Shown: piece by piece, positions 43,125 to 44,741 of the stretch
Layout of the letters: every line of letters begins with the position of its first letter
Numbering within the stretch: the first letter of the stretch is position 1
NCBI RefSeq assembly: GCF_042100115.1
Contig: NC_091279.1
Span: 1,922,001-1,986,000 of the forward strand
Direction: 5' to 3'
From: Alternaria dauci
Lineage: Eukaryota > Ascomycota > Dothideomycetes > Pleosporales > Pleosporaceae
DNA: 64,000 nt
Position numbers and translations under genes: made by a program
The notes under the pieces: generated by a model
The model's input: the letters and a program-made list of their open reading frames with translations, nothing else
Databases searched by the model: none
What the model was told of the DNA's origin: nothing

Positions 43125-44591
43125 ATGGCGCCCGGCCAGAACGAGCAGCCCAATGAGGCTGAAAAGAACATTGAGATCTGGAAGGTCAAGAAGCTCATCA
43201 AGCGTCTTGAAGCCGCTCGCGGAAATGGCACATCCATGATTTCCCTCATCATCCGTACGTGACGCCTGCATGCCAAAAGAGACGCGACCGGACTGACCAT
43301 GTGTAGCGCCCAAGGATCAGGTCTCTCGCGCTGCAAAGATGTTGGCTGAAGAATTCGTGCGTTTTTTCCACTTTGTGTGCCATATGGCCGAAACTAATTT
43401 TCCCAGGGTACTGCCTCCAACATCAAGTCGCGCGTCAACCGTCTCTCCGTCCTGTCGGCCATTACCTCGACCCAGCAGCGTCTCAAGCTCTATTCCAAGG
43501 TCCCACCCAATGGCTTGGTTGTCTACTGTGGTGAAATCATCACCGCCGAAGGCAAGGAGCGCAAGATCAACATCGACTTTGAGCCCTTCAAGCCCATCAA
43601 CACGTCCCTGTACCTTTGCGACAACAAATTTCACACAGAGGCACTGAGCGAGCTGCTTGAGTCGGACCAGAAGTTCGGTTTCATCATCATGGACGGAAAC
43701 GGTGCCCTCTTCGGCACTCTGTCAGGAAACACCCGTGAAATTGTCCACAAGTGAGTGCGACCAATACACCTCGGCATGCAGGAAACTAACACGCCAAGGT
43801 TCTCGGTCGATCTTCCCAAGAAGCACGGCCGTGGTGGTCAGTCCGCTCTGCGTTTCGCTCGTCTCCGTGAAGAAAAGCGCCACAACTACGTCCGCAAGGT
43901 CGCGGAACTGGCGGTACAAAACTTCATCACCGCCGACAAGGTCAACGTCGCTGGCATCATTCTCGCTGGTTCCGCCGACTTCAAGAACGATCTCAACCAG
44001 TCCGATCTTTTCGACAACCGTCTCCAGTCCAAGGTCATCAAGGTCGTCGACGTCTCCTACGGAGGCGAGAACGGTTTCAACCAGGCTATAGAATTGGCTG
44101 GTGAGACGCTCAGCAATGTCAAGTTCATCCAGGAGAAGAAGCTCATCAACGAGTACTTTGACCACATCTCCAAGGACTCTGGCAAGGTCTGCTACGGTAT
44201 CGATGACACCCTAAAGGCTCTGGAGGCTGGTGCTGCTGAGACTTTGATCGTCTTCGAGAACTTGGAGATCACTCGCTGGGTTCTCAAGAGTTCCGAGGGC
44301 TCGGAGATCATCCTCCACACTACCAAGGCGCAAGAAGAAGACCGAAGCATCTTCATGGACAAGGAAACTGGTCAGGAGATGGAAGTCATCGACCAGGGCT
44401 CCATGCTGGAGTGGCTCGCCGAGAAGTACCGCGACTTTGGTGCCAACCTTGAATTCGTTTCCGACCGTTCTTCCGAGGGTAACCAGTTCGTCAAGGGCTT
44501 TGGTGGTATCGGCGCCATCCTCCGCTACGCTCTCAACTTCGAGCAACTCGCCGACTTCGACGACGATGAAGATGAATTCTACGATGATTGA
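43125..44591 (+). CDS. SUP45: Peptide chain release factor eRF1
   Basis: Four exons (43125-43254, 43307-43356, 43407-43750, 43799-44591) encode 438 residues, the normal family length. Splicing at 43254/43307 restores GTSMISLIIPPKDQ. Stop-codon recognition motifs are intact: TASNIKS at 62-68 and YLCDNKF (YxCxxxF) at 129-135. The peptidyl-tRNA hydrolysis loop is GRGGQ, with GGQ at 187-189. The C-terminal eRF3-binding domain ends in an acidic tail (DFDDDEDEFYDD). It recognises all three stop codons in the A site and triggers peptide release with the GTPase eRF3. The gene's own stop is UGA followed by C, a comparatively leaky context, and the frame stays open for 49 further codons (next entries). 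Introns of 48-52 nt are typical for this genome. Confidence 0.97.
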
Positions 44592-44741
44592 CGGTTGTGC
44601 GCCCTCGCTGACAGCGAGGTAGCGTCCCCACTCGTTTCGAGTGACGGAACGTCCGCTACCCGCGCGATAAGTCAAAATGACGTGTCCAAGATCAAGGCCG
44701 GAGTAGTCGAAGCAACGACGCTTCGCCTTTCCAGATTGTAA
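44592..44741 (+). other. In-frame open extension after the eRF1 UGA, ending in PTS1-like SRL
   Basis: Directly after the UGA at 44589-44591 the same frame continues CGG TTG TGC GCC and stays open for 49 codons to a TAA at 44739-44741. The last residues read TTLRLSRL; Ser-Arg-Leu is a standard type 1 peroxisomal targeting tripeptide. The extension has balanced composition. Readthrough would therefore give an eRF1 form of 488 residues (with one inserted at the UGA) and a potential peroxisomal signal. This is seen directly; that it is translated is a hypothesis. Confidence 0.45.
44603..44660 (+). promoter_or_regulatory. Stem-loops directly after the eRF1 stop codon
   Basis: CCTCGCT (44603-44609) pairs with AGCGAGG (44613-44619) around a 3-nt loop, beginning 11 nt after the UGA. 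A second structure has outer arms GGTAGCG (44618-44624) and CGCTACC (44654-44660) enclosing CACTCG-TTT-CGAGTG (44629-44643). The two overlap by two bases, so they may compete. A stem-loop close downstream of UGA-C is a known stimulator of stop-codon readthrough in some viral and cellular mRNAs. Confidence 0.55.

What the first reader, a model, noticed from the sequence alone, without database searches (positions are those of the whole stretch)
44589..44741. eRF1 may be read through its own stop codon into a 49-codon extension ending in a peroxisomal signal
The release-factor gene ends in UGA followed by C. The same frame stays open for 49 codons and ends ...LRLSRL-TAA; SRL is a valid PTS1 tripeptide. 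Known biology: UGA-C contexts (UGA-CUA best) are leaky, and fungi make peroxisomal forms of some glycolytic enzymes by readthrough. Inference: when eRF1 activity falls, more readthrough of its own mRNA would occur, giving a feedback loop or a peroxisome-targeted eRF1. By simple codon statistics an open run of 49 codons has roughly a one-in-ten chance, and a PTS1 ending on top is much rarer. The context here is CGG, not the optimal CUA, so leakage could be low.
Basis: partly seen in the sequence, partly recalled or inferred. Interest (0 to 1): 0.75.

Follow-up and report, generated by a model that had tools for sequence, protein, structure and literature searches.

The report
Leaky stop in a fungal release-factor gene
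The fungal gene for the protein that ends translation appears to carry a leaky stop signal (UGA-CGG plus an RNA hairpin) followed by a likely intron, which most likely lets the protein adjust its own level, a circuit already described for plants and Neurospora; the peroxisome signal at the end of the extension is unproven.

Summary
In detail: the eRF1 gene ends in UGA (44589-44591), the frame stays open 49 codons and ends SRL-TAA. The open run alone is ordinary (18 of 90 gene-like ends). Less ordinary: UGA-CGG plus a perfect 7-bp hairpin 11 nt downstream, the type II viral readthrough layout (1 of 136 TGACGG sites in 264 kb of this genome, though 0.8% is also the base rate at any TGA). Deposited run-on eRF1 proteins, back-translated, fit UGA-CGG in 14 of 18 anchored ends and the hairpin in the same register in 6 of 7. 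A strong intron candidate (44771-44818) lies 179 nt after the UGA and 29 nt after the second stop. Mago, UPF1 and UPF3 are present. Best reading: eRF1 autoregulation by readthrough and 3'UTR-intron NMD, published for plants and Neurospora: a new member of a known kind. Peroxisomal targeting is weak: two Botryosphaeriales gene models also end SRL, but 17 of the 19 examined do not, and the context is not UGA-CUA. No transcript, footprint or peptide data and no relative's DNA were available.

The parts
43125..44591 (+). eRF1 gene, coding part (438 aa), exons 43125-43254, 43307-43356, 43407-43750, 43799-44591
   Evidence: spliced translation; eRF1_2 family hit in this genome at this place; 94.5% identical over 438 residues to Ophiobolus disseminans eRF1 P0005
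44589..44594 (+). main stop UGA with CGG context (type II leaky context)
   Evidence: sequence; type II definition; 14 of 18 anchored relatives compatible, anchors not neutral
44603..44619 (+). 7-bp perfect hairpin CCTCGCT-GAC-AGCGAGG, 11 nt after the UGA
   Evidence: 1 of 136 TGACGG sites in 264 kb has such a hairpin; base rate at all TGA 65 of 8049; first six pairs possible in the same register in 6 of 7 distinct relatives
44597..44665 (+). larger predicted branched RNA structure that includes most of the hairpin
   Evidence: MFE of the 75 nt after UGA -30.6 kcal/mol, lowest 0.7% of 1929 TGAC sites; z about -1.9 against shuffles for 150 nt and for 69 nt
44592..44741 (+). readthrough frame, 49 codons plus TAA, ends SRL
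   Evidence: SEVASP motif shared with Lasiodiplodia/Diplodia
44771..44818 (+). predicted 3'UTR intron, 48 nt (GTATGT ... GACTAAT ... CCCAAG), 179 nt after UGA and 29 nt after TAA
   Evidence: strict pattern 10 observed (this one included) vs 2 (reversed) or 2.4 (Markov) in both strands of 264 kb; CDS introns of this gene are 52, 50, 48 nt. Not confirmed by RNA
44738..44818 (+). alternative 81-nt intron with donor GTAAGA, which overlaps the TAA; its removal would carry the readthrough frame on to 89 codons, ending at TAG 44940-44942
   Evidence: looser pattern class only (152 observed vs 98 reversed, 112 Markov)

Best explanation
The eRF1 mRNA carries a self-sensing circuit. (1) Its UGA-CGG and the hairpin 11 nt downstream make termination inefficient, the more so the less eRF1 there is (inferred from the type II layout). 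(2) Normal termination at the UGA leaves an exon junction 179 nt downstream, which marks the mRNA for EJC-dependent NMD (intron predicted, decay inferred). (3) When eRF1 is scarce, ribosomes read through, translate 49 codons and stop 29 nt before the junction, or run across it if the upstream donor is used; this should clear the EJC and protect the mRNA (inferred). eRF1 thus limits its own synthesis. The extension is mainly the path that carries the ribosome to the intron; SRL is probably incidental.
For: UGA-CGG with a 7-bp hairpin at the type II spacing. In relatives, 14 of 18 anchored ends fit UGA-CGG; the hairpin's first six pairs are possible in the same register in 6 of 7 distinct proteins against 1.3-8.6% by chance. 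Strong intron candidate at NMD-triggering distance from stop 1 and 29 nt after stop 2. Readthrough frames of some relatives run into apparent donors: P0009 and P0011 share KxNKxPAxQxLxLxHGK, compatible with G|GTAAGT (0 of 5000 shuffles score as high); P0076 is compatible with GTACGT, ACTAAC and CAG (my decoding, weak). Mago, UPF1 and UPF3 present. Precedent: Arabidopsis eRF1-1 and Neurospora erf1 (title only).
Against: No RNA-seq, ribosome profiling, NMD-mutant or reporter data. The intron is a prediction. No relative's DNA was available: conservation is inferred from back-translated, mostly unnamed proteins related to one another, and the anchors presuppose a stop followed by C (or Y-G in one frame); with looser anchors 15 of 29 rows fit CGG, the misses mostly chance anchors but including two plausible ends, P0070 and P0110. 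P0039 and P0049 do not fit CGG; P0009 and P0011 have CAR; P0011 lacks the hairpin. Hairpins are no commoner after TGACGG (1 of 136) than after any TGA (65 of 8049). Our peptide is not above shuffles against P0048 (561 of 2000) or P0009 (1910 of 2000). In Arabidopsis readthrough rescued the mRNA from NMD only partially.
Confidence: 0.7

Rival explanations
1. Readthrough makes a peroxisome-targeted eRF1: the extension exists to deliver the C-terminal PTS1 tripeptide SRL, as with fungal metabolic enzymes.
For: SRL is a valid PTS1 (recalled); base rate of PTS1-like ends 44 of 9021; Lasiodiplodia and Diplodia extended gene models also end SRL at nearly the same length, 43 vs 42 residues from SEV, though the middle has diverged.
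Against: 17 of 19 complete extended gene models examined do not end in a PTS1. Context is CGG, not the UGA-CUA of peroxisomal readthrough. GAPDH (TAG) and PGK (TAA) of this genome show no UGA-CUA stop. If the 44738 donor is used, the SRL end is spliced away. No use for eRF1 in peroxisomes is known to me.
Confidence: 0.08
2. Nothing programmed: an ordinary UGA with a chance open frame, chance hairpin and chance PTS1.
For: 49 open codons follow 18 of 90 gene-like stops; a hairpin as good follows 0.8% of all TGA, so UGA-CGG plus hairpin at a gene end would be expected about once per genome by chance (my estimate, with a recalled gene number near 12,000); folding z only about -1.9; anchors in relatives are not neutral.
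Against: It sits on the gene for which this mechanism is published, and context and hairpin recur in the same register in relatives; SEVASP shared with Lasiodiplodia (0 of 2000 shuffles); intron candidate in the right place.
Confidence: 0.14
3. Readthrough is real but its purpose is the extended protein itself (altered stability or activity of eRF1), not NMD escape or peroxisomes.
For: Peptide similarity in pieces of the extension: P0009/P0011 (0 of 5000 shuffles), P0076/P0100 and P0048/P0122 (0 of 2000 each), P0009/P0025 (2 of 2000), P0009/P0103 (3 of 2000).
Against: The motifs differ between lineages; pairs across lineages such as P0045/P0048 (69 of 2000), P0045/P0122 (81), P0045/P0103 (236) and P0045/P0091 (325) are weak or not above shuffles; the shared SE[DV] part is the hairpin arm and may reflect RNA constraint; in some species the peptides end at apparent splice donors.
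Confidence: 0.08

Closest known systems
eRF1 autoregulation by readthrough and 3'UTR-intron NMD in Neurospora crassa (Kurilla et al. 2020; title seen in reference lists; paper not held; content recalled)
   Same: eRF1 gene, filamentous ascomycete, readthrough-prone stop, 3'UTR intron
   Different: Here a Pleosporales-like Dothideomycete with UGA-CGG and a hairpin; whether Neurospora has that hairpin could not be read
Arabidopsis eRF1-1 readthrough/NMD circuit (Nyiko et al. 2017, not read; via passages of PMC11062462 and PMC6755094)
   Same: Leaky first stop, intron more than 50 nt downstream, second in-frame stop, protection from NMD by readthrough
   Different: The plant element is CARYYA next to the stop; here it is CGG plus a stem-loop, and the second stop lies 29 nt before the predicted junction
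Type II viral stop-codon readthrough (passages of PMC3542737 and PMC11166343)
   Same: UGA-CGG and a 3' RNA structure starting about 6-12 nt after the stop
   Different: Cellular gene; used (inferred) for regulation instead of making an extended viral protein
Fungal and animal peroxisomal isoforms by readthrough (passages of PMC4207609)
   Same: UGA readthrough extension ending in a PTS1-like tripeptide
   Different: UGA-CUA context and metabolic enzymes there; CGG and a release factor here

Membership tests
eRF1 readthrough / 3'UTR-intron NMD autoregulation | Gene encodes canonical eRF1 with its normal C-terminus | tested here: met
eRF1 readthrough / 3'UTR-intron NMD autoregulation | Main stop in a readthrough-promoting context | tested here: met
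   UGA-CGG plus hairpin; by sequence only
eRF1 readthrough / 3'UTR-intron NMD autoregulation | Spliced intron more than about 50 nt after the main stop | tested here: inconclusive
   strong prediction 44771-44818; no RNA evidence
eRF1 readthrough / 3'UTR-intron NMD autoregulation | Readthrough frame ends within about 50 nt of, or beyond, the last junction | tested here: inconclusive
   TAA 29 nt before the predicted junction, or TAG beyond it with the 44738 donor; depends on the predicted intron
eRF1 readthrough / 3'UTR-intron NMD autoregulation | Genome has NMD and EJC factors | tested here: met
   Mago, UPF1, UPF3 domains over their cut-offs; other factors not searched
eRF1 readthrough / 3'UTR-intron NMD autoregulation | mRNA level depends on NMD and on eRF1 dose | not testable with these tools
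   needs mutants
Type II readthrough element | UGA followed by CGG or CUA | tested here: met
Type II readthrough element | 3' stem-loop separated by about 6-12 nt | tested here: met
   11-nt spacer, 7-bp stem
Type II readthrough element | Measured readthrough | not testable with these tools
   needs reporter or footprints
Peroxisomal readthrough isoform | UGA-CUA context | tested here: not met
   UGA-CGG
Peroxisomal readthrough isoform | PTS1 at the end of the extension | tested here: met
   SRL
Peroxisomal readthrough isoform | PTS1 kept in relatives | tested here: inconclusive
   2 of 19 extended gene models (both Botryosphaeriales) end SRL, 17 do not; no Pleosporales extension noticed among the 122 proteins read

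The most novel reading that the evidence does not exclude
Filamentous ascomycete eRF1 carries an old, virus-type II recoding element (UGA-CGG plus hairpin) as an eRF1 sensor, and in Dothideomycetes the readthrough product also acquired a conserved SRL signal that sends eRF1 into peroxisomes, so that one leaky stop both tunes mRNA stability and relocates the protein.
Probability: 0.08. Interest if true: 0.8.

Novelty: new member of a known kind. Interest (0 to 1): 0.45.

Why it matters
It would extend a direct feedback circuit, a termination factor measuring its own activity at its own stop codon, to another fungal class, and it points to a compact viral-style RNA element that makes the sensing step testable by point mutations. 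If the hairpin is as widely kept as the back-translated relatives suggest, it is a cellular counterpart of type II viral readthrough signals. Several deposited gene models are extended past this stop or fused to the next gene, so the element may also explain an annotation problem.

Tried and rejected
Relatives' DNA: eRF1 was sought in GTDB contigs (one archaeal locus only) and in IMG/VR (none); the genome tool holds no relatives of this genome and metagenome scans were capped at zero, so no PhyloCSF or dN/dS was possible. Rfam gave no match at E up to 1 in 43000-45700. Positive controls for peroxisomal readthrough, GAPDH and PGK, end in TAG and TAA. Open-frame length as evidence was rejected (18 of 90). 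Looser splice patterns are barely above chance (152 vs 98 and 112; 250 vs 198 and 232) and in the eRF1 coding part the loosest one finds the three introns plus two spurious sites. I considered the 44738 donor as the main one; the 48-nt intron fits this gene's intron lengths better, and both stay open. Literature: the rows listed by searches (13, 14 and 20 list 20 of 78, 42 and 32; 7 lists 5 of 6) showed, by title and start of abstract, no paper on a peroxisomal release factor or on this hairpin; Nyiko 2017 and Kurilla 2020 are not held, so the hairpin may be in print there.

Full report
What is there. The window lies in a 34.9-Mb, ten-contig genome, a fungus close to Pleosporales: its eRF1 is 94.5% identical to that of Ophiobolus disseminans, the best named match among the 122 proteins read (lineage). 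The eRF1 gene has four coding exons and ends EFYDD-UGA at 44589-44591. The frame stays open 49 codons and ends SRL-TAA, as reported.

Chance. In 264 kb of this genome (the window plus 20 stretches of 10 kb) 18 of 90 gene-like ORF ends are followed by 49 or more open codons, the eRF1 end included, so the length says nothing. The extension's codon usage is coding-like but not decisive: 34th percentile of 616 coding windows, top 9.7% of 1136 unselected open runs. PTS1-like ends close 44 of 9021 open runs (0.49%) and 2 of the 90 gene-like ends, eRF1 and one ending SHL.

The stop signal. UGA-CGG is named, with UGA-CUA, as the type II readthrough context, often with a 3' stem-loop about 6-12 nt away (passages of PMC3542737 and PMC11166343). 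Here a perfect 7-bp stem CCTCGCT-GAC-AGCGAGG starts 11 nt after the UGA. Of 136 TGACGG sites on both strands of the sample this is the only one with a perfect stem of 7 or more pairs starting 4-30 nt downstream; but such stems follow 65 of 8049 TGA and 15 of 1929 TGAC sites, so 1 of 136 is the base rate and the argument is that it falls on this stop. Of the 1929 TGAC sites 0.7% fold as well over 75 nt. Against dinucleotide shuffles the fold is only moderately unusual (z about -1.9).

Relatives. One search with the readthrough product gave 621 matches, of which the 120 listed could be read; two more with extended proteins gave 3 and 7 matches, 2 of them new. Many of these eRF1 proteins run past EFYDD, through predictor introns or by translation straight into what looks like an intron before the last codon. 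Where such a run-on crosses the stop in another frame, its residues constrain the DNA. I anchored 18 ends: 4 of 4 with QIDG require UGA-(C/T)GG; 10 of 12 with RLT fit CGG (P0039 and P0049 do not; in this frame UAA would fit as well as UGA); P0009 and P0011, which show W at the stop position, have CAR instead. So 14 of 18 fit UGA-CGG. Left out were P0121, whose QIDG lies elsewhere in the protein, a match inside the normal C-terminus of P0089, and unanchored DG matches. These anchors are not neutral: RLT presupposes a C after the stop, and ID[GDEVA] a pyrimidine and G. With looser anchors 15 of 29 rows fit CGG; most misses are chance anchors, but P0070 and P0110 may be real ends that do not fit. 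Of the 18, P0037 (Sarcosagium) and P0082 (Pyrenula) bear organism names; the rest are unnamed, and three pairs are near-duplicates (P0031/P0033, P0057/P0058, P0093/P0095).

Eight anchored ends are long enough to show the hairpin; P0095 duplicates P0093. In 6 of 7 distinct ones (P0009, P0022, P0037, P0046, P0069, P0093) the first six pairs are possible in exactly our register; P0011 is the miss, and P0093 fails the seventh pair. Chance is 1.3-8.6% depending on frame. Of the 13 rows with chance anchors, many of them near-identical Aspergillus, one (P0121) also passes. The proteins are related, so this shows conservation of the sequence that pairs, not independent covariation.

The extension peptide. 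Our SEVASP is shared with Lasiodiplodia and Diplodia (0 of 2000 shuffles as good for P0045), whose extended gene models also end SRL and are of nearly the same length. Part of SEV is the 3' hairpin arm. Twelve pairs were tested and one again: strong are own/P0045, P0076/P0100, P0048/P0122, P0009/P0103, P0009/P0025 and, on full length, P0009/P0011 (0 of 5000; 254 of 2000 when cut at 110 residues); weak or absent are own/P0048, own/P0009 and P0045 against P0048, P0122, P0091 and P0103. Of 19 complete extended gene models that I picked from the 122 proteins, only the two Botryosphaeriales end in a PTS1. I left out proteins fused to the next gene (P0010, P0100, P0121), a partial one (P0038), the metagenome run-ons P0009 and P0011, P0076 (ends GAGE) and run-ons that stop inside an apparent intron. 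That the 19 share our frame is inferred from SE[DV]-like motifs, not from DNA.

The intron. GTATGT at 44771, GACTAAT, and CCCAAG ending at 44818 make a 48-nt intron like those in the coding part (52, 50, 48 nt). Such a strict pattern occurs 10 times in both strands of the sample, this one included, against 2 in reversed and 2.4 in Markov sequence, so roughly four in five should be real. Two other donors (44738, 44775) share the acceptor but belong to a looser class barely above chance (152 against 98 and 112). The 44738 donor would remove the TAA and carry the frame on to 89 codons, ending at TAG 44940-44942, which by itself is not unusual. The main junction would be 179 nt after the UGA and 29 nt after the TAA. 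The frames of P0009, P0011 and P0076 also run into sequences compatible with donors (my decoding; weak).

Mechanism. Mago, UPF1 and UPF3 domains are present. In Arabidopsis, eRF1 mRNA is an NMD target through its long 3'UTR and distant intron, and readthrough of its stop protects it, in part, when eRF1 is low (passages of PMC11062462 and PMC6755094). The same was reported for Neurospora (title in reference lists of PMC10578600 and PMC9809470; abstract recalled, paper not held). The anatomy here fits that circuit, with a type II element where the plant has CARYYA. Shown: sequence layout and its recurrence in relatives. Inferred: leakage, splicing, decay and its relief.

Peroxisomes. In favour: SRL here and in two Botryosphaeriales, at about 0.5% each by chance. 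Against: the other 17 of 19 extended models, a context other than UGA-CUA (passages of PMC4207609), no such stop in this genome's GAPDH or PGK, and no use for eRF1 there that I know of. I give it 8%.

Verdict. Probably real and functional, as a new member of a published kind of circuit; the stem-loop may be a new detail, but I could not read the Neurospora or plant papers to check.

Noticed in passing
45349-46543: The next gene on the same strand is a prephenate dehydratase (PDT domain; start read by eye). Deposited gene models P0121 (Botryosphaeria), P0010 (Sarea) and P0100 (Meristemomyces) fuse eRF1 to a PDT domain, so the adjacency seems old.
   Followed up: partly
L031 (PGK locus), near 2242-2330: PGK ends ...SSK-TAA in CAAGTAAGTAAAG, so the stop overlaps a possible donor GTAAGT, and the in-frame extension of 21 codons ends PKL; alternative splicing could make a C-terminal variant.
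   Followed up: no
P0076: An eRF1 deposited as Quercus suber shares an extension with the fungus Meristemomyces (P0100), so it is probably a fungal contaminant.
   Followed up: no
44211-44804 minus strand: 197-codon open frame antisense to the eRF1 end; probably a by-product of codon composition.
   Followed up: no
P0028, P0048, P0052, P0063-P0065, P0080, P0102, P0109, P0122: Ten Aspergillus extended eRF1 models share PSKLR[NT]M near the end although the middle varies.
   Followed up: no
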